Assembly (NCBI GenBank): GCA_024707205.1
Contig: JANQAD010000001.1
Coordinates: 372,001 to 436,000 of the forward strand
Direction: 5' to 3'
From: Demequina sp.
GTDB taxonomy: Bacteria; Actinomycetota; Actinomycetes; Actinomycetales; Demequinaceae
DNA length: 64,000 nucleotides
Positions 23,950 to 58,721 of the stretch are shown here, piece by piece. Both the position numbers and the translations under genes were made by a program. The notes beneath the pieces are model-generated. The model was not told the origin of the DNA and made no database searches. It saw only the letters and a program-made list of their open reading frames with translations. The first letter of the stretch is position 1. Every line of letters starts with the position of its first letter.

Positions 23950-25472
23950 TCGTCGTCCTCGTCCTGGCTGCCCTGCGCCACAAGCGCGAGCACCGAGTCC
24001 ACGGTCACGTCCCCCGAGGCGAGGGTCTCGACGATGTGCCCGTCGCGCATGACGGCCACGCGATCGGAGACGCGCAGCACCTCCTCCAGCTCGGCAGAGA
24101 TGAAGATGACGGACAGCCCGTTGTCCGCGAGCTCGCTCACAAGATTCTGGATCTCGACCTTGGCGCCGATGTCGATCCCCCGCGTCGGCTCGTCAAGCAC
24201 CAGCAGGCGTGGCGCGAGCGCAAGGAGGCGAGCGAGCAGCACCTTCTGCTGATTGCCTCCAGAGAGCGTCCCCGCGGGCCTGTCCAGCTCCGCCGGCTTG
24301 ATCCCGAGCGCCTCGACCCAGCTCGCCGCGAGCTCGCGTTGGCGCGCAGGCCGCATGCGGTGCCAGATTCCGCGATCCGCCTGCACGGCGAGCACGATGT
24401 TCTCGAGCACGCTGAGCTCCGAGACGATTCCCTCCGCGCGGCGATTCTCCGACGAGTAGGCGACGCCCTTGGTGAGCGCCCTGTGCGGGCTCGAGAACTG
24501 CTGGTCGGTGCCCGCGATCATGATCACGCCCGAGTGGAGGCGGTCAACTCCCGTCACCGCCCTCGCGAGCTCCGTGCGGCCGGAGCCGAGCAGTCCGGCG
24601 ACACCGAGCACCCGGCCCTCGAACAGGTCCACGTCGGCACCCCGAATACCGCGGAACGTTGTGAGGTCCCGCGCAGAGAGGAAGGGCTCGTCGCCCTCGA
24701 GGTCCGACGCTGTGGCCCGGTTTCGCGTCTTGAGTTCCGTCTCCTTGTGGCCGAGCATCTTGTGGACCAGGTCGATGCGCAGCAGCTCTCGCGTGAGGTA
24801 CTCGCCAACGAGCTTGCCGTCCCTGAGGACGGTGACGCGGTCGCAGATCTCGTAGACCTGGTCGAGGAAGTGGCTCACGAAGAGGATCGCGACGCCGCGC
24901 TGCTTGAGCTCGCGAATGACGCGGAAGAGTTCGGCGACCTCATCGACGTCGAGGCTCGACGTTGGCTCGTCGAGCACGAGGACGCGAACCTGGGTGGAGA
25001 TGGCGCGGGCGATGGCCACGAGCTGCTGCACGGCGACCGACTGGGATCCGAGGAGCGAGGCCGGATCGATGTCCAGACCGAGGTCGGACAGCACCCGGTG
25101 CCCTTGACGGCGCATCTCCTTCGCGTCGATGAGTCCGGCACGGCGCGGCTCCCGCCCAAGGAAGATGTTCTCCGCCACCGAGAGGTTGGGCAGCAGCTCT
25201 ATCTCCTGGTAAACCGTGCTGATTCCCGCGTGCTGGGCGTCGATCGGGGAGTGCAGTCGCAGCTCGCTGCCGTCCAGGTAGAGCGTGCCGCGGTCGAGCG
25301 GCAGCACCCCGGTGATGGCCTTGATCAGCGTGGACTTGCCGGCGCCGTTCTCCCCCATGAGCGAGTGGACCTCGCCGGGAAACATGCGGAAGTCCACACC
25401 GTCGATGGCCGCGTCCGCGCCAAAGAACACCGTTGCATCGGTGATCTCGAGAAGCGGCTGTGGCTGGTCCAC
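23946..25472 (-). CDS. Sugar ABC transporter ATP-binding protein (two ABC domains, second copy)
   Basis: 508 residues, RbsA/YtfR type with two fused nucleotide-binding domains. The first has GENGAGKSTLIKAITGVL, ISTVYQEIELLPNLSVAENI and VRVLVLDEPTSSLD. The second has a degenerate Walker A (GLLGSGRTELARAV) but an intact signature, LSGGNQQKVLLARLL, and LLVLDEPTRGIDIG. This asymmetry is normal for the family. It powers uptake of a monosaccharide or short oligosaccharide. This is the second complete ATPase in the operon; the other is 27571-29112. It lies between a permease (46-base gap) and the LacI gene. Confidence 0.92.
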   Translation of the reverse strand: MDQPQPLLEITDATVFFGADAAIDGVDFRMFPGEVHSLMGENGAGKSTLIKAITGVLPLDRGTLYLDGSELRLHSPIDAQHAGISTVYQEIELLPNLSVAENIFLGREPRRAGLIDAKEMRRQGHRVLSDLGLDIDPASLLGSQSVAVQQLVAIARAISTQVRVLVLDEPTSSLDVDEVAELFRVIRELKQRGVAILFVSHFLDQVYEICDRVTVLRDGKLVGEYLTRELLRIDLVHKMLGHKETELKTRNRATASDLEGDEPFLSARDLTTFRGIRGADVDLFEGRVLGVAGLLGSGRTELARAVTGVDRLHSGVIMIAGTDQQFSSPHRALTKGVAYSSENRRAEGIVSELSVLENIVLAVQADRGIWHRMRPARQRELAASWVEALGIKPAELDRPAGTLSGGNQQKVLLARLLALAPRLLVLDEPTRGIDIGAKVEIQNLVSELADNGLSVIFISAELEEVLRVSDRVAVMRDGHIVETLASGDVTVDSVLALVAQGSQDEDDE

Positions 25473-25517
25473 GTCGTCATTATCTAGGTGCGGGGTGCGC
25501 GCGCGTGCCAGGCGGCG

Positions 25518-27574: not shown

Positions 27575-29112
27575 GCTGCGGTTTCCTTGCCTTCGTTCGC
27601 GATGTAGTCAACGAGCCCGTCGAGATCCACCGCGCTGGAGTCGAGCTCTCCGATGCGCTTGCGGTCTCGCAGCACCACCACGCGCTGCGCGATGCGGAGC
27701 ACCTCTTCGAGTTCCGACGAGATGAAGATGACAGACAGACCGGCTTCAGACAACTCGGCGACCTTCCGCTGGATGTCCGCCTTGGCGCCCACGTCGATGC
27801 CCCGCGTGGGTTCGTCTAGGATCAGCAGCCGTGGTGCGGTAGCGAGCCAGCGCGCAAGCAAGAGCTTCTGCTGATTGCCGCCGGACAGGTTGCGGGCCAG
27901 GGCGCTCGGGTTTGCGGGACGCACGTCGAGCGACGTCATGTAGTCCGCGACGATCGCGTCCTGTTCCGCCTTGCGGATCTTGTGCAGCCACCCTTTCCGC
28001 GCCTGGATGCCGAGCACGATGTTCTCGGCCACGGTGAGGTCGCCGATGATTCCCTCGCCGCGGCGGTCTTCGGACGAGAAGGCGACGCTGTTGTCGATCG
28101 CGTGACGCGGGGACGTCAGCCGAACGGGCTTGCCGCTCAGCTCAATGTGCCCAGCGTCGGGCCTATCCGCCCCGTAGAGAAGCCGAACGAGCTCCGTGCG
28201 GCCGGAGCCGAGAAGACCCGCGATGCCCACAACTTCGCCCTGGAACACGTCGATGTCGGCGGGCTCGAGGAAGCCCCTCTTGCCGATGCCCGTGGCGCGC
28301 AGCACGGGCGCTGCCGCCCTGTCGATCTGACGGTCGGCCGCGGTCGCGATGGCGGAGAGGTCGTCGAGCTCACGCCCGATCATCTTGGTGACGAGCTGGT
28401 CTCGCGGCAGATTGCGGGCCACATACTCGCCAACGAGCTTGCCATTGCGCAGCACGGTGATGCGATCGGCGATCTCGTACACCTGGTCAAGGAAGTGGCT
28501 CACGAAGAGGATCGCGACGCCCTTTGCGCGCAGGTCCCTCACAACCTGGAACAGCGCGTCCACCTCGCCCCGGTCGAGGCTCGAGGTGGGCTCGTCGAGG
28601 ATGAGCACCTTCGCGTCGAGCACCATGGCCCGGCTGATGGCCACCAGCTGCTGAATGGCAATGGAGTGGCTCGACAGCAGCGACCTGGTATCGAGGCTGA
28701 GGCCCAGCCCTGCGAGGTGCTCGGCGGCGGCGGCGTGGGTTGCCGACCAGCTGATCCTGCCGCCGGACCGCGCCTCGTGCCCGAGCATGACGTTCTCGCC
28801 AACCGTGAGATTGGTGCAGAGGTTGACCTCCTGGTAAACCGTGGAGATCCCGGCCTCCTGAGCGTCGGCCGTGCTGTGAAACGTGCGCTCCTCGCCGCTC
28901 ACGACGATGGTGCCGCTGTCCGTTGCATACACGCCGGTGAGGGCCTTGATGAGGGTGGACTTGCCGGCGCCGTTCTCGCCCATGAGCGAGTGGACCTCGC
29001 CCGCGCGAAGCGTGAAGTCCACCGCGTCGAGCGCGAGCACGCCGGGGAATGCGATGGTGATGGCCTTCATCTCGACGATGGGACGGACGGCGGTGTCCTG
29101 GGGGTCTGTCAC
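27571..29112 (-). CDS. Sugar ABC transporter ATP-binding protein (two ABC domains, YtfR-like)
   Basis: 513 residues. The first domain has GENGAGKSTLIKALTGVY, AGISTVYQEVNLCTNLTVGE and AKVLILDEPTSSLDRGE. The second has GLLGSGRTELVRLLYG, LSGGNQQKLLLARWLA and LLILDEPTRGIDVGAKADI. The STVYQEVNL segment is characteristic of YtfR, the galactofuranose transporter ATPase of E. coli (recalled family knowledge). It follows the ytfQ-type gene after a 99-base gap with a hairpin and is coupled to the next permease by a GTGA overlap. Confidence 0.92.
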   Translation of the reverse strand: MTDPQDTAVRPIVEMKAITIAFPGVLALDAVDFTLRAGEVHSLMGENGAGKSTLIKALTGVYATDSGTIVVSGEERTFHSTADAQEAGISTVYQEVNLCTNLTVGENVMLGHEARSGGRISWSATHAAAAEHLAGLGLSLDTRSLLSSHSIAIQQLVAISRAMVLDAKVLILDEPTSSLDRGEVDALFQVVRDLRAKGVAILFVSHFLDQVYEIADRITVLRNGKLVGEYVARNLPRDQLVTKMIGRELDDLSAIATAADRQIDRAAAPVLRATGIGKRGFLEPADIDVFQGEVVGIAGLLGSGRTELVRLLYGADRPDAGHIELSGKPVRLTSPRHAIDNSVAFSSEDRRGEGIIGDLTVAENIVLGIQARKGWLHKIRKAEQDAIVADYMTSLDVRPANPSALARNLSGGNQQKLLLARWLATAPRLLILDEPTRGIDVGAKADIQRKVAELSEAGLSVIFISSELEEVLRIAQRVVVLRDRKRIGELDSSAVDLDGLVDYIANEGKETAA

Positions 29113-33638: not shown

Positions 33639-33690
33639 CTAACCACGCTGCCCGACGCTGTGTCAAGTGCTCTCGCACTACAGTTGGGCT

Positions 33691-34290
33691 ATGTCTGAGA
33701 CGGCCCTTGTATGGATTGATTGCGAGATGACCGGCCTCGATACCTCGAAGGATGCGCTCATTGAGGTCGCATGCCTCGTCACGGACGCCGAGCTCAACGT
33801 GTTGGGCGAAGGAGTCTCCGTCGTGATCAGGCCGTCTGCCGAGGCGATCGACGGCATGGGCGACTTTGTGCGGAACATGCACACGTCGTCGGGCCTTATC
33901 GAGGATCTCGCCGCCGGACTCACGATGGAGGAAGCCCAGGCGCTGGTGCTCGACTACGTGCGCACCCACGTGCCCGTTGCTGGCAAGGCGCCGCTCGCCG
34001 GCAACACGGTGGGGATGGACAAGGCGTTTCTCGAGCGCGACATGCCGGAACTCATCGGCCACCTTCACTACCGCGTGGTCGACGTGAGCTCCATCAAGGA
34101 GCTCGTGCGCCGCTGGTATCCGCGCGTGTTCTTCCAGTCCCCGGCGAAGACCGGCGGGCACAGGGCGCTCGGCGACATCAAGGACTCCATCCGCGAGCTT
34201 CGCTACTACCGCGAGACCGTCCTGGTGCCGCTTCCTGGACCGGATAGCGACGCGGCGAAGGTTGCCGCGACCCGCGTCAACGAGGGTTAG
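33691..34290 (+). CDS. orn: Oligoribonuclease
   Basis: 199 residues. A DEDDh 3'-5' exonuclease with WIDCEMTGLD (first Asp/Glu pair), GNTVGMDKAFLERDMPELIG, YRVVDVSSIKELVRRWYP and the catalytic His/Asp in GGHRALGDIKDSIREL. It degrades 2- to 5-mer RNA and linear di-GMP in the cytosol and is essential in many bacteria. ATG 33691 (MSETALVW) is chosen over an upstream in-frame ATG because it matches the family start. tRNA-His follows on the same strand. Confidence 0.95.
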   Translation: MSETALVWIDCEMTGLDTSKDALIEVACLVTDAELNVLGEGVSVVIRPSAEAIDGMGDFVRNMHTSSGLIEDLAAGLTMEEAQALVLDYVRTHVPVAGKAPLAGNTVGMDKAFLERDMPELIGHLHYRVVDVSSIKELVRRWYPRVFFQSPAKTGGHRALGDIKDSIRELRYYRETVLVPLPGPDSDAAKVAATRVNEG

Positions 34291-34344
34291 GGAGCCGACG
34301 CCGGGGCACGGTACACTTTTCGCTGGCCCTCTCGCGGGGCCGAT

Positions 34345-34418
34345 GGTGGGTGTAGCTCAGCTGGTAGAGCGCCGCGTTGTGGTCGCGGATGTCGCGGGTT
34401 CAAGTCCCGTCACTCACC
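34345..34418 (+). tRNA. tRNA-His (GTG)
   Basis: The acceptor GTGGGTG pairs with CACTCAC. An extra 5' G (34345) faces C73, the hallmark of tRNA-His. D arm GTAGCTCAGCTGGTAGAGC, anticodon loop with GTG, T arm GCGGGTTCAAGTCCCGT. CCA is not encoded. A strong hairpin follows at 34458. Confidence 0.95.
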
Positions 34419-34457
34419 CTTAGCGGGATGGAGGCGCGCAGCGCCGATCACCCGAAG

Positions 34458-34491
34458 AGAAGGACCCCAAGGATCTCCTTGGGGTCCTTCT
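34458..34491. terminator. Bidirectional intrinsic terminator
   Basis: 16-bp perfect inverted repeat (arm AGAAGGACCCCAAGGA) with a 2-base centre, between tRNA-His (+) and the GlsB-like gene (-). The minus-strand continuation has no clear U-run, but stem strength and position support termination from both sides. Confidence 0.85.
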
Positions 34492-34503
34492 GCATCTGGG
34501 CGG

Positions 34504-34764
34504 TCAGCTCTTCTTCGCGAAGACGGCCCGGCCAACGCCGAGCAGAATCACCGCGACCACGATCGAGATGAGCCAGCGGATCCAGTCGATCCCGTCCGTC
34601 TTGTCCACTCCGAAGAGCCCGGCGAGCCAGTACCCGATGAGCGCACCGCCGATGCCGGCGATCCAGTTGCCCCACCAAGGCATTCCGGATGAGCCTTTCT
34701 GGATGAGCGAAGCGATGATTGCCAGCACCGCACCAAAGACAAGCGTGCCAATGAGTGTCGCCAC
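34504..34764 (-). CDS. GlsB/YeaQ/YmgE-type stress-associated small membrane protein
   Basis: 86 residues from GTG 34764, which has GGAGGGAG upstream. Three hydrophobic segments: LIGTLVFGAVLAIIASLI, WIAGIGGALIGYWLAGLFG with the Gly-rich pattern of the family, and WLISIVVAVILLGVGRAVF. The central WWGNWIAGIGGALIG stretch supports the Transgly_assoc/GlsB assignment. Family members are small stress-induced membrane proteins of unclear mechanism. It is divergent from the DUF4126 gene. Confidence 0.8.
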   Translation of the reverse strand: MATLIGTLVFGAVLAIIASLIQKGSSGMPWWGNWIAGIGGALIGYWLAGLFGVDKTDGIDWIRWLISIVVAVILLGVGRAVFAKKS

Positions 34765-34859
34765 CAGTTGCTCCCTCCTCCCCCCGGCTCCCGACTCTCG
34801 GGCGCCACTTGCCACGCTATCGTGGGTGCGAAGATCACGCGCGGCAACAGGAGGCAAGC

Positions 34860-35537
34860 ATGGAAGCGTGGGCACTCGCCCTGCTGACGGGCTCGGGCTT
34901 CGCGGCCGCGTCGGGACTTAACGCGTTCATCCCGATCGTGCTCGTTGGCGCGCTCGCGCGGTTCACCGATGTCATCGTGCTCCCCGAGCAGCTGCAGTGG
35001 CTCGAGTCGTGGCCGGTCATCATCATCGGCCTGATCTTGCTTCTCAGCGAGCTCGTGCTGGACAAGATCCCTGGTGTCGACCACATCAACGATCTGCTGC
35101 AATTCCTCGTGCGGCCCGTGGTCGGCGGCGTGATGTTCGTTGCGACCGCCTCGGCCGACATCCAGGGCCAGTCCGACTTCTGGTTCCAGCATCCGTGGAT
35201 CGCCGGCATAGCCGGCGCGCTGCTTGCGCTCGGCGTGCACACGGGCAAGGCGGTCGCGCGCCCCGCCGTCAACGCCTCAACCGGGGGCACCGGCGCTCCC
35301 ATCGCGTCATTCGCGGAGGACGCGCTCTCGGTGGCGCTGTGCCTCGTCGCGCTCTTCATCCCGATCCTCGTCCTGGTCTTCTTCATCTTCCTTGCGATCG
35401 CGCTGTATCGCATCGTCACCACGGGTCGCCGCAGGCGTCGGCGCCGGGCTCAACTCGAGGCCGCAGGTCGCGCAGAGCGCGAGGCGCAGGCGGAGGCCGG
35501 CGGCCAGACGTCGTGGTGGCGCGGCCGCTGGCGCTGA
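34860..35537 (+). CDS. DUF4126 family membrane protein
   Basis: 225 residues from ATG 34860, after AGGAGG. The first half (GSGFAAASGLNAFIPIVLVG, WPVIIIGLILLLSELVLDKI followed by PGVDHINDLLQFLVRPVVGG) is the DUF4126 core. The second half has two hydrophobic segments (AGIAGALLALGVHTGKAV, LSVALCLVALFIPILVLVFF) and ends in a very basic, then Ala/Glu-rich tail (TTGRRRRRRRAQLEAAGRAE). Function unknown. Its stop is 3 bases from that of the convergent TetR gene. Confidence 0.83.
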   Translation: MEAWALALLTGSGFAAASGLNAFIPIVLVGALARFTDVIVLPEQLQWLESWPVIIIGLILLLSELVLDKIPGVDHINDLLQFLVRPVVGGVMFVATASADIQGQSDFWFQHPWIAGIAGALLALGVHTGKAVARPAVNASTGGTGAPIASFAEDALSVALCLVALFIPILVLVFFIFLAIALYRIVTTGRRRRRRRAQLEAAGRAEREAQAEAGGQTSWWRGRWR

Positions 35538-35540
35538 GCC

Positions 35541-36104
35541 TTACAGCTCGAGCCCGGTGATGGCGGACGCGGACGCGAGGAATGCGCCCTTCACCTCGTC
35601 AGCCCCATCGAGGTAGCCGCCGACGAGAGCCGCATCGCGCAACAGCACCAGAGACCCGGCGACTTGCGCGGGATTGGCGAGCCCAGCGTCGGCCACAAGG
35701 GCGAGCAGCGTATCCCTGAACCACGAGCGGTGCCGAGTGACCACTTCCCGAACCGGCGACGCCGGGTCCGGGTACTCCGCGGCCGCGTTGATGAACGGGC
35801 AGCCTCGCGTGTGGCGGCGCTCGATGTCGTCCGCGATGCCGTGGATCACGGCGCTCAAGAGTTGGCTTGGCGTCAGGGAGGGGTCCGACGCCGCCTCGAA
35901 GTAGCCACGGATCGTCGCGTCCTCGCGGTCCAGGTAGGCGACGACGAGCGCCTCCTTGCCCTCAAAGTGGCGGTACATCGTTGCGCGCGTGACCCCGGCC
36001 TCGTCGAGGATGCGGTCCACGCCGACACCGTGGATTCCCTCGCGATAGAAGATGTCCGACGCTGTGGCGAGAAGCCTCTCGCGCGCCCCGCTGGTGGTGG
36101 TCAT
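35541..36104 (-). CDS. TetR-family transcriptional regulator
   Basis: 187 residues from ATG 36104 (a GTG three codons upstream is possible). N-terminal HTH: ARERLLATASDIFYREGIHG, then VDRILDEAGVTRATMYRHFEGKE. The ligand domain contains RRHTRGCPFINAAAEYPDP, a motif of the YxaF/LmrA-like TetR_C subgroup. Two copies of an AGAACG-N2-CGTTCT palindrome lie between it and the divergent hydrolase, so it probably represses both. Confidence 0.88.
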   Translation of the reverse strand: MTTTSGARERLLATASDIFYREGIHGVGVDRILDEAGVTRATMYRHFEGKEALVVAYLDREDATIRGYFEAASDPSLTPSQLLSAVIHGIADDIERRHTRGCPFINAAAEYPDPASPVREVVTRHRSWFRDTLLALVADAGLANPAQVAGSLVLLRDAALVGGYLDGADEVKGAFLASASAITGLEL

Positions 36105-36119
36105 GGCGTTCACGCTAGT

Positions 36120-36133
36120 GGAACGTTCGTTCT
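36120..36133. promoter_or_regulatory. TetR operator copy 1 (GGAACG-TT-CGTTCT)
   Basis: Nearly perfect inverted repeat (one mismatch) 16 bases upstream of the tetR start. It repeats the site at 36183-36196 in inverted form, which strongly suggests both are bound by the same dimeric repressor. Confidence 0.7.
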
Positions 36134-36182
36134 GCTGGAAAGATTTCCTGGCTCGATCGTAGGTTGGGGAATAGACTCAAGT

Positions 36183-36196
36183 AGAACGAACGTTCT
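36183..36196. promoter_or_regulatory. TetR operator copy 2 (AGAACG-AA-CGTTCT)
   Basis: Perfect 6-bp arms with a 2-bp spacer, 43 bases upstream of the hydrolase start. Its spacing from copy 1 (63 bases) places one site at each of the divergent promoters. Confidence 0.75.
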
Positions 36197-36238
36197 GTCT
36201 CACAAGCGGAACGATCCGTCACTACCAAGGAGAGAATC

Positions 36239-37075
36239 ATGAGCACCATCACCGAGCGCGAGGCCCAAGAGGTGAGCGCCGCCAATGCATCCGGCAAGCA
36301 GCCCGTTGTCTTCATTCACGGGCTGTGGCTGCTGGCGTCGAGCTGGGACGCCTGGCGCGAGCGCTTTGAGGCAGAGGGCTACGCGACCGTGGTCGTGGAC
36401 TGGCCAGGGGACGCGGCATCGGTCGCAGAGGCCCGGCTCGGTCACGACTCGCTCGCCGGCGTCGGCGTCCAAGAGGTCACCGACCACATCGCCCAGGTGG
36501 TTCGCGGCCTGGATCGCAAGCCCATCCTCGTCGGCCACTCGTTTGGCGGGCTGCTGGTGCAGCGCATCGCGGACCTGGGCCTGGCCGCGGCGTCCGTCGC
36601 GATCGACCCGGCGCCGTTCAAGGGAGTGCTGCCCCTTCCGAAGTCGACGCTCAAGGCGTCCTCCCCCGTGCTGAGCAACCCCGCAAACCGCAAGCGCACC
36701 GTCACGCTGAGCTTTGACCAGTTCCGCTACGGATTCGCGAACGTGGTCAGTGAGGATGAGGCCAAGTCCCTCTACGAGCAGTTCCACGTCGCCGGTCCAG
36801 GGCGCCCGCTGTTCCAGGCGGCCGCGGCTAACTTCAACCCCAACGCCACCACCAAGGTGGACGTCAAGAACCCCGAGCGTGGCCCGCTGCTCATCATCAA
36901 CGGAGCCGAGGACCACATCGTCCCCAACGCGGTCGCGAAGGCAGCGTTCAAGCTGCAGTCGAAGAACCCGGGCCGCACCGAGTTCCGCGAGATCCCTGGG
37001 GTGGGGCACTCGCTCGTCATCGACTCGCGTTGGGGCGACGTGGCGGACGCGGCGCTTGAGTTCATCCGCTCGTAG
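36239..37075 (+). CDS. Alpha/beta hydrolase
   Basis: 278 residues. FIHGLWLLASSWDAW forms the oxyanion-hole strand, GHSFGG carries the nucleophile Ser (about residue 101), INGAEDHIVP carries the acid, and GVGHSLVIDS carries the catalytic His, so the triad is complete. The cap region includes FDQFRYGFANVVSEDEAKSL. The substrate is unknown; the family includes esterases and non-haem haloperoxidase-like enzymes. A strong RBS (AAGGAGAG) precedes ATG 36239. Control by the divergent TetR gene suggests induction by a small hydrophobic compound, possibly its substrate. Confidence 0.88.
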   Translation: MSTITEREAQEVSAANASGKQPVVFIHGLWLLASSWDAWRERFEAEGYATVVVDWPGDAASVAEARLGHDSLAGVGVQEVTDHIAQVVRGLDRKPILVGHSFGGLLVQRIADLGLAAASVAIDPAPFKGVLPLPKSTLKASSPVLSNPANRKRTVTLSFDQFRYGFANVVSEDEAKSLYEQFHVAGPGRPLFQAAAANFNPNATTKVDVKNPERGPLLIINGAEDHIVPNAVAKAAFKLQSKNPGRTEFREIPGVGHSLVIDSRWGDVADAALEFIRS

Positions 37076-37085
37076 CGGGAAGCGA

Positions 37086-37113
37086 AAGGCCCGGTCCATC
37101 CGGACCGGGCCTT
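37086..37113. terminator. Bidirectional intrinsic terminator
   Basis: 12-bp perfect stem AAGGCCCGGTCC / GGACCGGGCCTT with a 4-base loop. It lies 11 bases after the hydrolase stop and just downstream of the convergent tRNA-Lys; TTCTCGTT follows on the + strand. Confidence 0.88.
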
Positions 37114-37121
37114 CTCGTTGG

Positions 37122-37194
<73 letters not shown>

Positions 37195-37262
37195 ATGGCG
37201 CGAGTAACGAGTTTATCAGCAACGACCGCAGGCGCGAAACCGAAAAGCGGCCCGCTGTCGCC

Positions 37263-41927: not shown

Positions 41928-42029
41928 CGTCACCCCCCTCTCGGTTGAGCCGACTGTAGCGATTTCGCGGCGCTCCCGCAGAGTCCTGTGGACAGCCGTT
42001 GTTGGTTCGTGACCCAACCGTCGCTTGGC

Positions 42030-42059
42030 GTGACATTGGCCCTGGTCAGAGCGGATACC
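42030..42059 (+). promoter_or_regulatory. Candidate sigma-70-type promoter of bcp
   Basis: -35-like GTGACA (42030-42035), 18-base spacer, -10-like GATACC (42054-42059). Transcription would start within a few bases of the GTG codon at 42069, and no Shine-Dalgarno sequence is visible, so the message may be leaderless, which is common in actinobacteria. Weak -10 match; tentative. Confidence 0.35.
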
Positions 42060-42068
42060 GTAAGCGGC

Positions 42069-42539: not shown

Positions 42540-42561
42540 GCCTCGCGTATCCTTGACGCGC

Positions 42562-42643
42562 GCGCGAGTGGCGAAATTGGCATACGCGCTGGATTTAGGT
42601 TCCAGTGTCCTCGGACGTGCGGGTTCAAGTCCCGCCTCGCGCA
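42562..42643 (+). tRNA. tRNA-Leu (TAG)
   Basis: 82 bases, class II with a variable arm (TGTCCTCGGACGT). Acceptor GCGCGAG pairs with CTCGCGC, the anticodon loop ATTTAGG gives TAG, and the T arm is GCGGGTTCAAGTCCCGC. CCA is not encoded. Its last 19 bases overlap the 3' end of the convergent prolyl iminopeptidase gene. Confidence 0.95.
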
Positions 42644-43584: not shown

Positions 43585-43616
43585 GTCGTCATCGTATGGG
43601 CGGCGCACGCACCAGA

Positions 43617-44261: not shown

Positions 44262-44285
44262 GCACTAGCGCTGCCGCAAACGTGG

Positions 44286-44318
44286 CGACGCTGGGGCCGA
44301 AAGCCAGCCCCAGCGTCG
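44286..44318. terminator. Bidirectional terminator hairpin with arm CGACGCTGGGGC
   Basis: 12-bp perfect stem with a 9-base loop (44298-44306) between the stops of the LysE-type gene (+) and trxA (-). The arms contain the CGACGCTG core of the dispersed motif seen elsewhere in the window. Confidence 0.85.
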
Positions 44319-44325
44319 GGCAATC

Positions 44326-44691
44326 TCAGTGCGAGTGCTGCTCCGCGACCTGGCGGCGCACGTCATCCATGTCGAGGCCTTCGACGGCCTCGACGAGCTG
44401 CTTCAGCGCCGGCCCGGGCAGGGCGCCCGCCTGGCTGAAGACCATGATGCCGTCGCGGAACGCCATGAGCGTGGGGATGGCGGTGATGTCAAAGCGGTTG
44501 CTGAGTTCCTGGTGGGCCTCGGTGTCCACCTTCGCGAAGGTGATCTCGGGCTTGTCCTCGCTGAGCGCGCCGTAGATGGGCGCGAATGCCTTGCACGGTC
44601 CGCACCACTCCGCCCAGAAGTCGACGAGCACGATCCCGTCCTGGCTCACGGTCTCGTCAAAGGTGGCGGTGGTCAGGTCGACGGTTGCCAT
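44326..44691 (-). CDS. trxA: Thioredoxin
   Basis: 121 residues. The active site WAEWCGPCKAFAPIYG has both redox cysteines, and the cis-Pro loop is ITAIPTLMAFRDG. The C-terminus (MDDVRRQVAEQHSH) is about 12 residues longer than the shortest thioredoxins. It acts as general cytosolic disulfide reductase. It starts 100 bases from the divergent NUDIX gene. Confidence 0.95.
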   Translation of the reverse strand: MATVDLTTATFDETVSQDGIVLVDFWAEWCGPCKAFAPIYGALSEDKPEITFAKVDTEAHQELSNRFDITAIPTLMAFRDGIMVFSQAGALPGPALKQLVEAVEGLDMDDVRRQVAEQHSH

Positions 44692-45440: not shown

Positions 45441-46061
45441 TCAGCGGGAGGTCGCTAGCGCTTCCCCTACGTGCCGGGCGAGCGCCCTGAACGCCGCGGC
45501 CCGGTGAGAGATGCGATTCTTCTCCTCCGGCTCCAGCTCGGCGCTCGTCACCGAGTATCCCTCTGGGATGAAGATGGGGTCGTAGCCAAAGCCGTTTCTG
45601 CCCGACGCTGTGGTCGCCAAAGCCCCTCGTACAGTCCCCATTTCCACCACTTCGGTGCCGTCCGGCTTGACGAGCACGGCGGCGCAGACGAAGGCTGCGC
45701 CGCGGTTGGCGGCGGGGATGTCCGCCATCTGGTCGAGGAGCAGCTGCAGGTTCTCCGCGTCCGCGCCGTGCCGCCCGCACCACAGCGCGGAGAAGATCCC
45801 GGGCGCTCCGCCCATGACGTCAACGGCGATGCCGGAGTCGTCCGCGATCGCCGGGAGCCCCGTGGCCGCACACAGCGCTCGCGCCTTGATTAGCGCGTTC
45901 TCGGCGAACGACGTGCCGTCCTCGACGGGGGCGGGCGCACCCAACTCCCCGGCAGACACCACCGACTCCCGCGTCAGCCCAGGCACCAAGGGCGCGAGGA
46001 TCGCCCAGATCTCCCCCACCTTGTGGGCGTTGTGGGTCGCGAGCGCGATCCGCGCGGCCAT
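45441..46061 (-). CDS. rdgB: Non-canonical purine NTP pyrophosphatase, RdgB/HAM1 family
   Basis: 206 residues. IALATHNAHKVGEIWAIL is the N-terminal nucleotide-binding motif; DGTSFAENALIKARALC, PAIADDSGIAVDVMGGAPGI and GRNGFGYDPIFIPEGY are the other family blocks. It hydrolyses dITP, ITP and XTP to monophosphates, keeping hypoxanthine and xanthine out of nucleic acids. The start overlaps the rph stop; rph-rdgB pairing is widely conserved. Confidence 0.95.
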   Translation of the reverse strand: MAARIALATHNAHKVGEIWAILAPLVPGLTRESVVSAGELGAPAPVEDGTSFAENALIKARALCAATGLPAIADDSGIAVDVMGGAPGIFSALWCGRHGADAENLQLLLDQMADIPAANRGAAFVCAAVLVKPDGTEVVEMGTVRGALATTASGRNGFGYDPIFIPEGYSVTSAELEPEEKNRISHRAAAFRALARHVGEALATSR

Positions 46062-46810: not shown

Positions 46811-47598
46811 TCAGACCTCGTGCGCCTGCCCCGGAAGCGCGTGCGCCGCCCCCGGCACGTGCGCGTGCACTTGCGCCATCGTTTCAGCCGGCGGCACCCA
46901 GCTGGCGATGTGCGTCACCACGGTCTTGGCGGCGCCCGACGCTGCGGCAAGTCTCCCCAGTTCGTCACCATTCATGTGGATACCAGGGGGTTCTCCCACC
47001 GGTGCGCCCAGCCCGCCTCACCGAGCAGCAGGTCGCAACCGCGAGCGAGCGCGTCCACCTCCGCGCAGCGGTCGGTATCGCCCGTGAAGACCACGGATGC
47101 GCGGCCTTGGTAGGGCGATGGCCCCTCGATCCGGTAGGCGAGCGCGGGCACGGGATGGAATGCGCGCGCCGCCGCGATGTCGAACGGACCGAGGGAGACG
47201 CGAGCGCCTTGCTGGAGCGCGGTGAAGTCGAACTCGCTGAGGTCGTCGTAAGTAGCGTCGGGCCCGGTGTCGCCACCTATCTCGAGGATCCGGCGGTCGA
47301 TCCCGGGAGGGCCGAAGAGGTTGATGCGCGGCAGGCTCGCATCGCGGTCGGGACCGTAGCGACGCAGCACGGAGAGCGCTCCCAGGTCCGCGCAGTGGTC
47401 CGGGTGGCCGTGGCTGATGAGCACCCCGTCCACGCGCGACGGGTTGCAGTACTGCTGCAGCGGCCCAATGGCGCCGGACCCAAGGTCAAGCACCAGTCGC
47501 CACGTGCGGCCATCGGCGTCGGCCTCAAGCAGGTAGCAGGATGCGGGAGAGTCCGGGCCGGCCGTGGACCCGGCGGAGCCCACGATCGTGAGCCTCAC
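46811..47598 (-). CDS. MBL-fold metallohydrolase (RNase Z / cAMP phosphodiesterase-like), frame broken at 46986-46990
   Basis: The metal site [11 protein letters not shown] (HxHxDH) and later ligand regions ([25 protein letters not shown]) mark a beta-lactamase-fold hydrolase. The frame shifts after [10 protein letters not shown] at a run of five Cs; a sixth C continues into [20 protein letters not shown] and [15 protein letters not shown], which holds the last metal-ligand His. The repaired protein has 262 residues. GTG 47598 overlaps the repaired murI stop (GTGA). It is the usual gene between murI and rph in actinobacteria; substrate unproven. Confidence 0.85.
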
Positions 47599-48394
47599 AG
47601 CGTCTCCACGGCGGTGACGACCGGGCCCAGAAGCGCTGCGCGAGCTGCTCGAAGCGATCCCGCTCCCCGGTCGCGAAGAAGCGGTGGGAAGGAACCGTGT
47701 CGGTGGGCGCCTCGATCCCGTTGGCCGCGAGCGCGCGGTACACGTCGATCGCGGTCTCGATCGCCGAGTCCACGAGGGTCACGTCCTCCCCCATGACGTA
47801 GCCGATGGCGCCGGCGAGCATCGGGTAGTGCGTGCAGCCGAGGATCACGGTGTCCACGCCCGCCTGCGTGAGCGGCTCAAGGTACTCGTGCGCCACCGTC
47901 ACCACCTCCGGTCCCGAGGTGATTCCCGCCTCAACGAGCTCCACGAAGCGCGGGCACGCCTGGCTCGTCACCTGGATGTCCGGGGCTCCGGCGAGCGCGT
48001 CGTCGTAGGCGCCAGACGTGATGGTCGCGACCGTGCCGATGACGCCTACGCGGCGGTTGCGGCTGAGCGCCGCCGCGCGCCGGACCGCGGGCACGATCAC
48101 CTCGACAACCGGCACTCCCCGCTCCCGCGCGAAGCGCTCGCGGGCATCGCGAAGCACCGCCGCGGACGCCGTGTTGCAGGCGATTACCAGGAGTTTCACG
48201 CCGTCATCGACGAGCTGGTCCATGATCGTCAGCGCGTGCCGCCGCACGTCGGCGATGGGCAGTGGTCCGTAGGGCCCGTTGAGGGTGTCGCCCACGTAGT
48301 GGATCGACTCGTGGGGCATCATGTCCATCATCGCGCGGGCAACGGTGAGCCCGCCGACTCCGGAATCGAAGACGCCGATCGGCGCGTCAGTCAT
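47595..48394 (-). CDS. murI: Glutamate racemase, frame broken near 47626
   Basis: [33 protein letters not shown] (first catalytic Cys) and [11 protein letters not shown] (second catalytic Cys) are intact. It makes D-glutamate for peptidoglycan. The frame shifts 11 codons from the end: one G at 47626-47628 restores [12 protein letters not shown] and a TGA that overlaps the next gene (GTGA), giving 266 residues, a normal length. As the enzyme is usually essential and both neighbours fit the repaired frame, the break is probably an artefact. ATG 48394 overlaps the DUF2017 stop (ATGA). Confidence 0.92.
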
Positions 48395-49023
48395 GCATCT
48401 CCCTCTGCCACGTACTCCACGAGCGATTCCTGCAGCCACGTCAGCGCTTGGTACAGCATGCCAAGCCATACCCGCTCATGGTCGATCGGCAGCACCTGGT
48501 CGTCGTCTGTCTCGAGCGCGTGGGCAGCGAGGTCGATCTCCTGGTGGAGCCGGTCGGCGTCGTCGTCGGTGACGAGGCCGAGCCTGGACGCCAACACGAG
48601 CCGCACGTCGGTGAGCGCGGCCGCGGTCGCGAGCGCCTCGTCGGCCTGCACCACCCACTCATCATCCGAGCGGCTCAACTGCTCCCAGATGCGCCTCAGT
48701 CGGCGGATCTTCGTGGCGCGCAGCTCCCCGTCCGTGAGGCGTCTGAACTCCTCGGCGACCTCGCGATCGGCGGGCGCGGCGTTGGGCAGCAGGCGCAGAA
48801 TCGCGGGGTCGGAGGGTTCGCGGATGGACTCCTCGAGTCCCCTCAGGTACTCGAAGGGATCGTCCACGTCCGACGCTGTGGTTGGCTCCGCGGGGTGGTC
48901 CAGCCCAAACGCCTCGGCTCCCAGAAGGCCGGCCACGTCGGCGACGATGCGAGCGACCACGAGCCGCTCCTCGTCGTCGAGGATCGCAACGGCGGTGCCT
49001 CCCACCGGCTCGAACCCTCTCAC
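48391..49023 (-). CDS. DUF2017 family protein
   Basis: 210 residues from GTG 49023, which overlaps the clpS stop (GTGA). It is acidic and mostly helical: [40 protein letters not shown] and [20 protein letters not shown]. There are no membrane segments or catalytic motifs. DUF2017 is almost always adjacent to clpS in actinobacteria; its function is unknown, and a link to ClpP proteolysis is only inferred from position. Confidence 0.88.
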
Positions 49024-51944: not shown

Positions 51945-52705
51945 GTCAGGTCCCTGTGCTCGCGCTCGTCGCCCACGAGCTCGACGAAGCGCTCCTCGAG
52001 TTCGCTGCCGCCGCGCACGTCGTCGATGTCGCCGGAGGCCAGCACGCGACCGGCACCCACCACGGCCACATGCGTGCACAGGCGTTCTACCAGGGCCATC
52101 ACATGCGACGACATCACCACGGTGCCACCACCGGCGACAAAGTCGATGAGGATGCGGCGGATCGCCGTGGCGCTCACGGGGTCGACCGCCTCGAAGGGCT
52201 CGTCGAGCACGAGCACCCGTGGCGCGTGCACCAGCGCGCACGCGAGCGCGATCTTCTTCGACATCCCGGCCGAGTAGTCCATGACGAGGGTCCGCGAAGC
52301 CCCGCCGAGGTCGAGTGCCGTGATGAGGTCATCCCGCCTGCCCTCGATGACGTCCGGGCTCAGGCCCCGCAGGCGGCCCGCGTAGGAGATCAGCTCGGCG
52401 CCGGTGAGCCTGTCAAAGGTGCGCAGCCCGTCAGGCAAGACGCCAAGCAGAGGCTTGGCAGCGTCGGGCCGTCTCCAGAGATCAATGCCGCAGATGTGAA
52501 CCGTGCCGGCGTCCGGGGTGAGGAGGCCCGTCGCCATCGAGAGGGTGGTGGTCTTGCCCGCGCCGTTCGGTCCCACCACGCCGTAGAACGAGCCCACCGG
52601 GATATCGAGGTCGATGGCGTCCACCGCCCGCAAGCTCCCGTAGACCTTGGTGAGTCCGTGCAGGGCCATCGCTGGGACGGAGTCCGGATCGGCGGCCTTG
52701 TCCAT
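51926..52705 (-). CDS. ABC exporter ATP-binding protein
   Basis: 259 residues from ATG 52705. Walker A GPNGAGKTTTLSMATGLL, signature region MDYSAGMSKKIALACALV (SAGMS in place of LSGGQ), Walker B VLVLDEPFEAVDPVS and switch VVMSSHVMALVERL. The altered signature sequence and the FEAVDP motif recur in multidrug- or lantibiotic-type exporters. The gene overlaps the permease start by 19 bases, so the subunits are translationally coupled. Confidence 0.9.
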   Translation of the reverse strand: MDKAADPDSVPAMALHGLTKVYGSLRAVDAIDLDIPVGSFYGVVGPNGAGKTTTLSMATGLLTPDAGTVHICGIDLWRRPDAAKPLLGVLPDGLRTFDRLTGAELISYAGRLRGLSPDVIEGRRDDLITALDLGGASRTLVMDYSAGMSKKIALACALVHAPRVLVLDEPFEAVDPVSATAIRRILIDFVAGGGTVVMSSHVMALVERLCTHVAVVGAGRVLASGDIDDVRGGSELEERFVELVGDEREHRDLTWLRPS

Positions 52706-52769: not shown

Positions 52770-53636
52770 ATGGTGGCCATGCCTGACACGATCGCGCCGG
52801 AGACCCGAATGGGTCCGGTTCGCCTGCTCGTGAACGACCTCGACACGATGCTGGCGTTCTACCGCGACGTGCTCGCCCTCGACGCGATTCGCGCCGACGG
52901 CGACACGCACGTGCTGGGCCGCGGCGGGGTCGAGACCATGTCGCTCACCCCCTCCCAGGGACTGCCGCGGTTCGATCGTCGCGGCGCCGGGCTGTTCCAC
53001 ACCGCGGTGGTCTTCGACAGCGAGCCCGGGCTCGCGGCCGCCGTGGCGCGCGTTGCGCAGGCGGCGCCCCGCGCGTACACGGGCAGCGCCGACCACCTCG
53101 TCAGCAAGGCCTTCTACTTCGATGACCCCGAGGGCAACGGGGTGGAGCTCTACTGGGATCGCCCGCGCTCCGCATGGGCGCGAGACGCCGAGGGCCGCCC
53201 CGTCATGGGCACCGAGTACATCGACGCGAACGGCTACCTCGGCAAGCACCTCACGGAGGGCGAGTTCGCCTCTCCGCTCGCCGCCGCGAGCGTGGGCCAC
53301 GTGCACCTGCAGGTGGGCGACATCCCCTCGGCAAAGCGCTTCTACGTGGACACCATGGGCTTCGACGAGGTCTTCGACATGGGCTCCGCCCTGTTCGTGT
53401 CCGCGGGCGGCTACCACCACCACATCGGCCTGAACACGTGGAACTCGCGCGGTGCCGGACCGCGTGCCGCCTCCTTGGGTCTGGGCCGCATGGACATCGT
53501 CCTGCCCGGGCCCGACGCTGTGGCCGCCTTGCGCTCTCGCCTCGAGTTCGCGGGCGTGGACGTGGAGGACGACGGCCAGGAGCTCACGTTCCGGGACCCG
53601 TGGGGGACGGTGATCCGCGCGAGGGTGGGTGCGTAG
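52770..53636 (+). CDS. VOC-family dioxygenase (catechol-2,3-dioxygenase-like, CatE)
   Basis: 288 residues from ATG 52770 (ATG 52779 is also possible). Two glyoxalase-fold modules: the first contains RLLVNDLDTMLAFYRDVLAL, LFHTAVVFDSE and DPEGNGVELYWDRPRSAW; the second contains GHVHLQVGDIPSAKRFYVDT, GYHHHIGLNTWNSRGAG and LTFRDPWGT. His in FHTAV and HVHLQ and Glu in VELYWD fit the metal site. Homologues are usually annotated as CatE; the ring-cleavage substrate is unproven. Confidence 0.88.
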   Translation: MVAMPDTIAPETRMGPVRLLVNDLDTMLAFYRDVLALDAIRADGDTHVLGRGGVETMSLTPSQGLPRFDRRGAGLFHTAVVFDSEPGLAAAVARVAQAAPRAYTGSADHLVSKAFYFDDPEGNGVELYWDRPRSAWARDAEGRPVMGTEYIDANGYLGKHLTEGEFASPLAAASVGHVHLQVGDIPSAKRFYVDTMGFDEVFDMGSALFVSAGGYHHHIGLNTWNSRGAGPRAASLGLGRMDIVLPGPDAVAALRSRLEFAGVDVEDDGQELTFRDPWGTVIRARVGA

Positions 53637-56090: not shown

Positions 56091-56117
56091 AGCCGGCCAC
56101 AGCGTCGGGCCCCCTAC

Positions 56118-56249: not shown

Positions 56250-56267
56250 CTCGTACACAGGGATAAG

Positions 56268-56632
56268 TGGAGATGGCGGGAATCGAACCCGCGTCCGCAT
56301 GGTCAAACCTAGGTCTTCTCCGGGCGCAGCCTGAGAAGTGTTTCTCGGCCCCTCACCAACATCAGGCGAGCCGGTGAGATGGGCCCAGTCACCTAAGTGT
56401 CCCGAGCGCCCCGATGACGAGAGCGATCAGCAAGTTCCCTAGATGACGCCAGGATCCAGGACGGGAACACGCCTGGGCTGACGGACTTCATGGCGCTCGC
56501 TTAGGCAGCGAGGGCGAAGTCGGTGCGATTGGAATCGGCACCTGTATTTTGCTGGGAACGTTTACGAGATAACCCAACATTCTCGGCCCGCTTCCCCTAG
56601 GAAGTAAACACACGTCGAAACCGATCATCCCC
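56268..56632 (-). ncRNA. ssrA: Transfer-messenger RNA (tmRNA)
   Basis: 365 bases, standard one-piece type. The 5' end GGGGATG pairs with CATCTCC at the 3' end, and the T arm (GCGGGTTCGATTCCCGC) is typical. The resume codon GCC opens the tag ORF 56501-56539 encoding ADSNRTDFALAA and TAA, close to the mycobacterial tag ADSHQRDYALAA. CCA is not encoded. With SmpB, encoded 2.2 kb away on the same strand, it rescues stalled ribosomes and marks the products for Clp proteolysis; the adaptor clpS lies 7 kb to the left. Confidence 0.96.
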
Positions 56633-56649
56633 TGTGCAGTTATGGGTCC

Positions 56650-56788: not shown

Positions 56789-56846
56789 CGTTGGGCGCGC
56801 CGCCGGAGGTCGCCACGGGCGCGGCCACGGCCGCGGCCGCGAGCAC

Positions 56847-58721
56847 CTACCAGCCGCCTCCACCGCCGCCTCCACCGCCGCCGCCGGAGAACCCTCCCCC
56901 GCCTCCCCCGCCGAAGCCGGAGCTGCCGCTCGAGCCCGGAGTGGGTGCGGAGACCGCAGCGGAGGTGAGAGAGGAGAACTGCGAGATGGTCCCCGTGAAG
57001 CCATTCGACAGGGCCCAGAACGAGCCCAACGTGTAGCCCGTCATCCAGTTGGGCTCCGCCACCTGGTAGCCGGCCGCCGCGAGGTCCTGGAACTTCTTGG
57101 TCCACTGCTCGGCGATGCCGAAGGCGATCGCGTAGGGCAGGTACTTGGAGAAGATGTCCTGGCCCTCCTCGAACTTGAGCTGGTTCGCGTCGGCGGTGCG
57201 CAGGAACAACTCGAAGCCCTTGGACTCGGCGAGCACGCGAGAGCCCTCCGCTTGGCGCACGGGAGCGGCGCGCTGCGTGAAGATGAGCACCGCGCCGATG
57301 AGGATCAGCGGCAGGGTCAGCAGCACGGAGCCGCCGAGGTTGGCCACAAAGAACGAGCCGAAGAAGCCGGCGACGACCAGCAGCACACCGAGCCCAGCCC
57401 AGGCGAGGCGGGTCGAGGATGGCGCCCGCCGGTACCAGCCCATGGACACCGTGTCCTGGTACATCTGCACGGACACGTCCTGGAGCGTCTTCGCGAAGGT
57501 CGTCTTGAGCTCCGAGAGCAGCACCTCGTTGCGGCCAAGGAAGATCTGGTCAAAGAGCTCGCCCTCGTACTTGAGCATCGTCGAGTCCGAGTTCTTCAGC
57601 TTCACGAGCCGGTAGTCCTCGGCCTCGACGTGGTCAACGCGCAGATACCCGCGAACGGCGAGGTCTACGATGGTGGCGGTGACGTCCCTGGTATCTGCCG
57701 ACTCGTCCCACAGCGTGCCCACGAGCCCGGGCGCCACACCCTTTGGCGGATCGAACCGCACCGCGACCGGCGGCGCCTTGCGCAGCGACCGTGTGGTGCC
57801 CTCATCGGCGCCGGTTGGCGCGAGGCCGGGGGTGAGCCCCGCGTAGTACTCGTCCCGCGTGGCCCTCCACAGCGCACGCCCCAGCAGGACGCTGCCTCCA
57901 ATGAGGATGAGCAGTCCGGGAAGGGCCCACGGCAGGGACCAGCGGAAGGCGCGCGCAGTGTCGTCCGCGATCTCCAGCTGGGGGGTCGTGTCGAACGAGC
58001 CCGCCGGGTACAGAACGTCAACGGTCATCGGCTGCCCGGGGCTGAGCGCCGCGTGCGTGAACGTCGCCTTCGCGCCCGTGGCGGATGCGGAATCGCACGG
58101 GTCCGCGACGCCGGACGCTCCCGCGAAGCACTGGGCGGCGATCGCATCGACCGGACTCATGACCGTCACGGTTGCATTGGAGATGGGAATCTCGAAGCCG
58201 TCGCCGATCGCGTTCCAGTAGAACTCGTCCGCATCGATGGGATCCGACTGTCCCGGCGGCACCGCGTCCGTCACCGAGTTCATGACGTGGTGGACGGTGT
58301 ACGTGAGCACGTATGTCTGCTTGCCGCTGACGTTGTCGATGTTCTCGTCCCCGATGCGGACCACGAGCCAGTAGTCACCGTCCTCGGTGTACACCTTCGC
58401 CGGCGCTCCGGTGGGGCTCGACGCGGTGAGGTCCGTGATCTCGTACACGCGGTTGTAGGTGTCGTCGTAGACCTGGTGAGTGGGGAACGTGAAGTACGGC
58501 CCGTGGCCCGGGTCGTCGCCGAAGTCGAAGTCGATCTCCAGGCGCACCTTCGCCGAGCCATCAGCCTGCAGGTCGTAGGTCTCGTCCCAGCGGGTGATCT
58601 GGTTGCCCGTGGTTGTGGTGCTTGTTTCCAGGCCCGACGCTGTGGTTAGGTCCGACGCCGTGGCCGGGGTCGCTGCGAACGTCGCCAGGGCGGCGGCAAG
58701 TGCCGCAAGAAGCCATCTCAT
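56847..58721 (-). CDS. DUF2207 domain membrane protein with glycine-rich tail
   Basis: 624 residues. A signal peptide (RWLLAALAAALATFAATPAT) is followed by the extracytoplasmic DUF2207 domain (ITRWDETYDLQADGSAKVRL, GPYFTFPTHQVYDDTYNRVY, VLTYTVHHVMNSVTDAV). Hydrophobic helices lie at about residues 275-295 and 425-475 (LAWAGLGVLLVVAGFFGSFF). A cytoplasmic domain follows (QLKFEEGQDIFSKYLPYAIA), then a C-terminal tail of FGGGGGGGFSGGGG type. Function unknown; the family is thought to be envelope-associated. Codons for SDLTTASGLE contain two copies of the dispersed motif. Confidence 0.87.
   Translation of the reverse strand: MRWLLAALAAALATFAATPATASDLTTASGLETSTTTTGNQITRWDETYDLQADGSAKVRLEIDFDFGDDPGHGPYFTFPTHQVYDDTYNRVYEITDLTASSPTGAPAKVYTEDGDYWLVVRIGDENIDNVSGKQTYVLTYTVHHVMNSVTDAVPPGQSDPIDADEFYWNAIGDGFEIPISNATVTVMSPVDAIAAQCFAGASGVADPCDSASATGAKATFTHAALSPGQPMTVDVLYPAGSFDTTPQLEIADDTARAFRWSLPWALPGLLILIGGSVLLGRALWRATRDEYYAGLTPGLAPTGADEGTTRSLRKAPPVAVRFDPPKGVAPGLVGTLWDESADTRDVTATIVDLAVRGYLRVDHVEAEDYRLVKLKNSDSTMLKYEGELFDQIFLGRNEVLLSELKTTFAKTLQDVSVQMYQDTVSMGWYRRAPSSTRLAWAGLGVLLVVAGFFGSFFVANLGGSVLLTLPLILIGAVLIFTQRAAPVRQAEGSRVLAESKGFELFLRTADANQLKFEEGQDIFSKYLPYAIAFGIAEQWTKKFQDLAAAGYQVAEPNWMTGYTLGSFWALSNGFTGTISQFSSLTSAAVSAPTPGSSGSSGFGGGGGGGFSGGGGGGGGGGGW

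What the first reader, a model, noticed from the sequence alone, without database searches (positions are those of the whole stretch)
24702..58663. Dispersed, strand-biased 14-bp motif GYCCGACGCTGTGG
Exact copies on the + strand begin at 24702, 36054, 45600, 48868, 53510 and 58632. Copies with one mismatch, also on the + strand, begin at 17878, 33650, 46934 and 58650. The only comparable copy on the other strand is 56099-56112 (13 of 14). Assuming about 70% GC and random sequence, far fewer than one exact copy is expected. Copies fall in minus-strand genes (reading T-A-S-D/G), in a plus-strand gene (P-D-A-V at 53510) and in intergenic DNA (33650, 56099), so protein conservation does not explain them. 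The shorter core CGACGCTG also appears in a terminator stem (44286) and in the ssrA promoter spacer. Polarity plus indifference to gene context is what is expected of a replication- or segregation-orienting, recombination-hotspot or methylation-linked motif.
Basis: seen in the sequence. Interest (0 to 1): 0.75.

Follow-up and report, generated by a model that had tools for sequence, protein, structure and literature searches.

The report
Species-specific DNA uptake tags in actinobacteria
The repeated 14-letter word is part of a short DNA tag scattered over a thousand times through this bacterium's genome, with related species carrying slightly different versions, much like the 'self-DNA' tags by which some Gram-negative bacteria choose which DNA to take up, but here in high-GC Gram-positive bacteria, where our searches found no earlier report of such tags.

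Summary
The 14-mer is real and genome-wide: 181 exact copies in 2.54 Mb, 0 of the reversed word. It is not polar (89+/92-; no replichore contrast). It is the core plus part of a one-sided shoulder of a roughly 17-bp motif; the core 9-mer (read as GCGTCGGGC) occurs 1,206 times. Word counts without prior expectation in 24 genomes of the genus return a variant of this motif as leading 10-mer in 20 (once second to poly-C). Whole-genome counts show GCATCGTCC, GCATCGGCC or GCGTCGGGC at 584 or more copies in 36 of 44 species, strands balanced; eight are weak or without. Variants follow a 30-species ComEC tree. Copies are 2-3 times over-represented between genes; close pairs are mostly inverted. ComEC and PilM occur in 43 of 44 species; the window's genome has a type IV pilus operon, ComEA and DprA. 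This is the anatomy of DNA uptake sequences with dialects, known from Neisseriaceae and Pasteurellaceae. Uptake preference is untested, no receptor is identified, and this assembly's comEC lies in two frames. Searches of open papers found no such report in Actinobacteria.

The parts
24702..24715 (+). exact 14-mer, in minus-strand ABC-transporter gene 23946-25472
36054..36067 (+). exact 14-mer, in minus-strand gene 35541-36113
45600..45613 (+). exact 14-mer, in minus-strand gene 45441-46061
48868..48881 (+). exact 14-mer, in minus-strand gene 48391-49005
53510..53523 (+). exact 14-mer, in plus-strand glyoxalase-family gene 52770-53636
56097..56110 (-). exact 14-mer, intergenic
58632..58645 (+). 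exact 14-mer, in minus-strand DUF2207 gene 56847-58721; direct pair with 58650
58650..58663 (+). one-mismatch copy
17878..17891 (+). one-mismatch copy, intergenic by my gene calls
33650..33663 (+). one-mismatch copy with full 10-mer core, intergenic
46934..46947 (+). one-mismatch copy with full core, intergenic
44308..44321 (-). one-mismatch copy with full core; overlaps the right arm of the hairpin below
44287..44317 (.). inverted arrangement: hairpin with an 11-bp stem between convergent genes (43617-44261 + and 44326-44691 -); no run of T follows on either strand
   Evidence: (z -3.2; 1 of 200 shuffles as low)
11106..11115 (+). 10-mer core copy, intergenic
21025..21034 (+). 10-mer core copy, in gene
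3912..3921 (-). 10-mer core copy, intergenic
6003..6012 (-). 10-mer core copy, in gene
8549..8558 (-). 10-mer core copy, in gene
14440..14449 (-). 10-mer core copy, in gene
28153..28162 (-). 10-mer core copy, in gene
47254..47263 (-). 10-mer core copy, intergenic
52460..52469 (-). 10-mer core copy, in gene

Best explanation
The word is a DNA uptake sequence (uptake-signal type) of a naturally transformable, type-IV-pilus-bearing actinobacterial genus. Shown here: a roughly 17-bp asymmetric motif (in reverse orientation about C-G-R-C-C-N-C-[A/C]-GC[A/G]TCG[G/T][C/G]C), from hundreds to about 2,000 strand-balanced copies per genome, enrichment between genes, mostly inverted close pairs, species dialects around constant positions (GC-TCG--C) that follow the ComEC tree, and pilus and ComEC genes in 43 of 44 species. 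Inferred: the species are transformable; a surface DNA-binding protein, most likely one of the type IV pilins, prefers this motif; retraction by PilT brings DNA to ComEA and ComEC; incoming DNA recombines with the chromosome, so motif-bearing alleles spread (molecular drive) and the motif accumulates where sequence is least constrained. A change of receptor preference would change the dialect of a lineage.
For: Counts: 181 exact 14-mers vs 0 reversed; core 10-mer 154 seen vs 5.0 (Markov-4) or 11.0 (Markov-5) expected in 464 kb; 9-mer 1,206 vs 100 reversed. No strand or replichore bias. Dialects: leading 10-mer is a motif variant in 20 of 24 sampled genomes, in G009 second to poly-C and in G003 weak; whole-genome counts put 36 of 44 species at 584+ copies of GCATCGTCC (16 species; reversed-word control 8-23), GCATCGGCC (18; control 44-110) or GCGTCGGGC (2; control 100 and 146); on a ComEC tree of 30 species the labels need 6 changes, shuffled mean 13.8, 0 of 200 as low. 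Shared shoulder CC(-4,-5), R(-6), G(-7) in all three dialects, and C(-2) in all sets shown but one. Intergenic: 241 of 860 copies vs 293 of 2,996 shuffled-word copies in 20 genomes (odds ratio 3.6, p 4e-37; intergenic bases 12.3%). Close pairs (<60 bp): 26 inverted, 8 direct. Machinery: PilM 43 of 44, ComEC 43 of 44, operon pilB-pilT-pilC-pilA-pilD-pilM-pilN and ComEA in the window's genome, DprA.
Against: No uptake or transformation has been measured. No receptor identified: PilA of the window's genome scores weakly to Pfam ComP_DUS (E 2e-4, 22.6 bits, cut-off 27.3) but PilA of three congeners does not match it. ComEC of this genome is read in two frames, so this strain may have lost competence or the assembly has an indel there. 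Eight of 44 species show a weak motif or none, although seven of these eight have both ComEC and PilM. The intergenic excess is absent in 3 of 20 genomes (G002, G017, G021). The 181 sites depart slightly from even spread (KS p 0.011). In proteins, motif sites lie in gapless alignment in 62 of 81 cases, less than random sites (93% of 405), so origin by point mutation is not shown for all. Under-representation in acquired DNA was glimpsed once, not tested. The reversed-word control is rough: in other genera CGCATCGKCC is commonly 1-5 and up to about 11 times its control.
Confidence: 0.8

Rival explanations
1. Binding sites of a chromosome-organising or nucleoid protein (Noc-, MatP- or SlmA-like, or a global regulator) spread round the chromosome.
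For: Dispersed, strand-balanced, intergenic excess; slight departure from even spread over the chromosome (KS p 0.011).
Against: Such sites number tens and cluster by region (recalled); here 584-2,018 copies of the dialect 9-mer in 36 species, most of those sampled inside genes (619 of 860). Change of hundreds of sites to a new word between lineages has no evident drive under this reading, whereas biased uptake supplies one (inference).
Confidence: 0.08
2. Oriented replication or recombination signal (KOPS or Chi).
Against: 89+/92- over the genome, no replichore contrast; 10-mer core 7+/9- in the window itself; a motif of about 17 bp with dialects is unlike these short words (recalled).
Confidence: 0.04
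3. Remnants or ends of a mobile or REP-like repeat.
For: Inverted close pairs, one of which folds into a hairpin.
Against: Sequence outside the motif shows little conservation in the flanks examined (25 bases each side; 14 bases each side in seven sets); most copies are single and inside genes. Longer repeats round the copies were not searched for in congeners.
Confidence: 0.03
4. Codon or amino-acid usage artefact.
For: Within genes some frames dominate; an outgroup word of similar rank (G260, [AG]CCTCGGCG) is of this kind.
Against: The G260 word is mostly in one frame and orientation (50 of 89 in genes) and not enriched between genes (10 of 99, intergenic bases 15%), while the genus motif is in both orientations and enriched between genes.
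Confidence: 0.02

Closest known systems
DNA uptake sequence (DUS) of Neisseriaceae
   Same: Very many short non-palindromic copies, dialects around a constant inner trinucleotide that follow the core-genome tree, inverted pairs associated with terminators, type IV minor pilin receptor (PMC3630211 and PMC12616744, passages seen).
   Different: Unrelated sequence (constant positions GC-TCG--C, not CTG); Gram-positive high-GC hosts; about 0.2-0.75 copies of the 9-mer per kb in the 36 species; no ComP orthologue shown.
Uptake signal sequence (USS) of Pasteurellaceae
   Same: 9-10-bp core plus weaker shoulder on one side, no orientation bias round the chromosome, excess outside genes (PMC1939737, passages seen); dialects (PMC12616744, passages seen).
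   Different: Different sequence; GC-rich rather than AT-rich shoulder; fewer copies (475 per Mb for the 9-mer in the window's genome, against 1,014 per Mb for USS10 in H. influenzae, PMC7811141, passage seen).
Natural transformation of Micrococcus luteus (Actinobacteria)
   Same: Actinobacterial, ComEA/ComEC (PMC4322843, passages seen).
   Different: Uses Flp/Tad pili and is reported to lack other T4P genes; text searches of PMC4322843 and PMC8467076 find no 'uptake sequence'. The genus here has type IV pilus genes; the window's genome also has further T2SSE-family ATPases, one beside a small Flp-like pilin by my reading.

Membership tests
DNA uptake sequences (DUS/USS) | Short non-palindromic word strongly over-represented genome-wide | tested here: met
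DNA uptake sequences (DUS/USS) | No orientation bias round the chromosome | tested here: met
   replichore test in the window's genome only; strand totals balanced in the genus
DNA uptake sequences (DUS/USS) | Excess outside genes, yet many copies in genes | tested here: met
   241 of 860 copies intergenic vs 293 of 2,996 control copies; absent in 3 of 20 genomes
DNA uptake sequences (DUS/USS) | Inverted pairs forming terminator hairpins | tested here: inconclusive
   26 of 34 close pairs inverted; one hairpin between convergent genes at 44287-44317, without a T run; termination not tested
DNA uptake sequences (DUS/USS) | Species dialects with constant inner core, congruent with phylogeny | tested here: met
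   a single-gene quick tree of 30 of 44 species, so congruence with a core-genome tree is not shown
DNA uptake sequences (DUS/USS) | Pilus and ComEA/ComEC uptake machinery present | tested here: met
   ComEC of the window's own genome lies in two frames; ComEA looked at in that genome only
DNA uptake sequences (DUS/USS) | Motif-specific receptor (ComP-like minor pilin) | tested here: inconclusive
   PilA of G000 matches ComP_DUS at E 2e-4, 22.6 bits, cut-off 27.3; PilA of G027, G016, G024 do not match it
DNA uptake sequences (DUS/USS) | Preferential uptake or transformation by motif-bearing DNA | not testable with these tools
   needs the bench
DNA uptake sequences (DUS/USS) | Under-represented in recently acquired DNA | tested here: inconclusive
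   a low-GC stretch with polysaccharide-type genes in L006 has a 12.8-kb motif-free gap; one case only
KOPS / oriented Chi | Orientation switches at origin and terminus | tested here: not met
   best split 19, shuffled mean 27.2, 89% of 500 shuffles at least as high

The most novel reading that the evidence does not exclude
A third, independently evolved uptake-sequence system, the first in Gram-positive bacteria: an actinobacterial genus whose species recognise their own DNA through a type IV pilin, with at least three dialects that divide the genus into DNA-exchange groups; the dialect GCATCGTCC appears in two separate clades, and one clade holds two dialects and species with almost none, i.e. 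switches and losses caught in progress.
Probability: 0.75. Interest if true: 0.9.

Novelty: new variant of a known kind. Interest (0 to 1): 0.85.

Why it matters
Strong sequence preference in DNA uptake is described for species of two Gram-negative families (PMC7811141, passage seen). An unrelated motif with the same anatomy and dialect behaviour in actinobacteria would suggest that biased uptake evolves repeatedly, would give a new receptor-motif pair to find and solve, and would make the question why uptake is selective testable in a third lineage.

Tried and rejected
Replication polarity: rejected. Codon artefact: rejected by comparison with an outgroup word that looks like one. The gene calls were mis-trained for some high-GC congeners (antisense calls seen for G024); replaced, the one cited; even there G011, G015 and G020 show 22-30% intergenic bases, so their gene calls may be incomplete. 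The first ComEC tree used minus-strand loci unreversed and is void; replaced. De novo words in other genera: no variant of this motif led the lists in samples of G351, G252, G260, G213 (80-100 kb) or G044 (60 kb); in G351 GCATCGGCC was third among 9-mers (30 vs 10.9 expected).

Searches for an earlier report in open PubMed Central papers: (from 2015); the listings and abstract starts showed no uptake sequence in Actinobacteria. Passages of seven papers were seen. Subscription papers and preprints are not covered.
Full report
Observation. The window holds 7 exact copies of GYCCGACGCTGTGG (6 on +, 1 on -) and 5 with one mismatch (4 on +, 1 on -); with two mismatches allowed, 28 against 4.41 expected. 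The window is C1:372001-436000 of a 2,538,242-bp single-contig genome, which holds 181 exact copies, 89 on + and 92 on -, and none of the reversed word. The 181 sites are slightly unevenly spread (KS p 0.011) and 7 of 180 gaps are under 60 bp, at a mean spacing of 13.8 kb.

What the word is. [quoted passage not shown] Aligned copies show this core with a weaker shoulder on one side: in the reverse orientation about C-G-R-C-C-N-C-A-GCGTCGG[G/C]C, roughly 17 bp. Sequence further out shows little conservation. The mismatch spectrum is steep: 30.6-fold excess for the exact 10-mer, 1.8-fold for one mismatch, 0.77 for two (six shuffled words: 0-1.75, 0.71-1.67, 0.80-1.16). The best tolerated changes in this genome are at positions that vary between dialects.

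Relatives. The exact 14-mer is nearly absent from other species of the genus (21 copies in G027, 4 or fewer in each of the other 42). But word counts without prior expectation in 24 genomes (the window's own 464 kb; 80-200 kb of 21 congeners; 40 kb of G013; 10 kb of G037) return a variant of the same motif as the leading 10-mer in 20; in G009 it comes after a poly-C word and in G003 it is weak (11 vs 1.3). The four others are G004, G012, G013 and G037. Whole-genome counts of the 9-mers, both strands, give GCATCGTCC at 929-1,864 copies in 16 species (reversed word 8-23), GCATCGGCC at 584-2,018 in 18 (reversed 44-110), and GCGTCGGGC at 1,101 and 1,206 in two, G027 and the window's genome (reversed 146 and 100): 36 of 44. 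G018 carries two words (1,294 and 664). Eight are weak or without: G004, G012, G013, G034, G035, G037, G039, G043; of these G012 and G013 still have 409 and 472 copies of GCATCGGCC (reversed 46 and 74), and G037, a draft, 274 of GCGTCGGGC (reversed 67). Strand totals are balanced in the enriched species.

Outside the genus. Among 396 genomes of the order (34 of this genus, 362 of others), CGCATCGKCC reaches 1,777 copies in the genus; in other genera it is at most 254 (G159, a 9.4-Mb genome) except 607 in G351. The reversed-word control is rough: in other genera the ratio is commonly 1-5 and up to about 11, so I rely on copy numbers and on the Markov and de novo tests rather than on this ratio. 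Eleven of the 34 genus members also stay below 254 for this particular 10-mer, because their dialect differs within it or they lack the motif. De novo words in 60-100-kb samples of G351, G252, G260, G213 and G044 do not put a variant of the motif first.

Phylogeny. On a ComEC tree of 30 species (those of the 43 whose locus was fetched; the window's genome is absent because its comEC is split) dialect labels need 6 changes against a shuffled mean of 13.8, 0 of 200 shuffles as low. GCATCGTCC forms one group of eight and a second pair, G021 and G029, which sits beside G004 and G043 (hardly any motif) and G027 (the window's dialect). One gene and a quick tree: the pattern, not each branch, is what I rely on.

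Placement. With gene calls trained from the window's genome, 241 of 860 copies in 20 genomes lie wholly between genes, against 293 of 2,996 copies of shuffled words of the same letters and 12.3% of bases (odds ratio 3.6, p 4e-37, copies treated as independent; copies across a gene edge set aside). The excess is absent in G002, G017 and G021. Pairs closer than 60 bp are inverted 26 times and direct 8 times. In the window, 44287-44317 between two convergent genes folds into a hairpin with an 11-bp stem (z -3.2, 1 of 200 shuffles as low); no run of T follows, so its role as a terminator is open. Inside genes certain reading frames dominate, as expected if only tolerable peptides survive. Protein alignments across motif sites are gapless in 62 of 81 cases against 93% of 405 control sites, so the copies sit in less conserved stretches.

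Machinery. ComEC is found in 43 of 44 species and PilM in 43 of 44; the exception in both is G037, an 85%-complete draft. In the window's genome an operon runs aroE - pilB - pilT - pilC - pilA - three genes that look like minor pilins, one of them with a Pfam prepilin match - pilD - pilM - pilN - a gene in the place of pilO; ComEA lies before comEC and DprA is present. ComEC domain matches fall in two overlapping frames at 2,039,413-2,040,200: an assembly indel or a real frameshift; I left it as it is.

Mechanism. Shown: anatomy, numbers, placement, dialects, machinery genes. Inferred: that these species are transformable, that a pilin or other surface protein prefers the motif, and that molecular drive through biased uptake and recombination accumulates it; this model is argued for H. 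influenzae and Neisseria (PMC1939737 and PMC7811141, passages seen). The receptor is open: PilA of the window's genome touches Pfam's ComP_DUS model below its cut-off, PilA of three congeners does not.

Comparison with the known. Strong uptake preferences are described for species of two families, Pasteurellaceae and Neisseriaceae (PMC7811141, passage seen). The Neisseria dialects keep a CTG core, follow the core-genome tree and occur as inverted pairs (PMC3630211, passages seen). The present motif matches that anatomy with an unrelated sequence in Actinobacteria. Text searches of two papers on transformation of Micrococcus luteus find no mention of an uptake sequence. My literature searches found no earlier report in open papers; that is no proof of absence.

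Verdict. Chance, codon usage, mobile repeats and replication polarity are excluded or unlikely. A DNA uptake sequence with dialects is the best explanation (0.8), pending an uptake assay.

Noticed in passing
G000:C1:2039413-2040200 (L160 about 6413-7200): comEC domain matches lie in two overlapping reading frames; G011 and G023 show similar splits, which may be long-read indels or real frameshifts.
   Followed up: partly
window 33650-44312: Longest stretch of the window without the 9-mer GCGTCGGGC (10.7 kb); it holds a 1,385-aa gene (37263-41420, -) with no Pfam match at 1e-5.
   Followed up: no
L006 7162-19979: 12.8 kb free of the 9-mer in the lowest-GC sample (64.9% for the 20 kb), with genes that look like polysaccharide synthesis by my reading of their sequences; perhaps acquired DNA.
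   Followed up: partly
G351 (other family, same order): CGCATCGKCC occurs 315/292 times against controls 20/23, above the other genomes of its genus that were searched; not the top word in a 100-kb sample.
   Followed up: partly
G260, L170-L173: [AG]CCTCGGCG occurs 99 times in 80 kb, mostly in one codon frame and not enriched between genes: probably a codon-usage word, useful as a negative control.
   Followed up: yes
L180 1598-1694 (G044): Five copies of CCGTGCGGAC at a 24-bp spacing: a tandem array.
   Followed up: no
L073-L076, L120 (G009): Poly-C/poly-G runs (11-mers of C counted 36 times in 100 kb), maybe one or a few tracts; phase variation or assembly artefact.
   Followed up: no
window 56267-56632: tmRNA gene on the minus strand with tag ADSNRTDFALAA; a two-mismatch copy of the motif (GTCCGACGCTGTCA, 56664, +) lies just upstream of it.
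   Followed up: no
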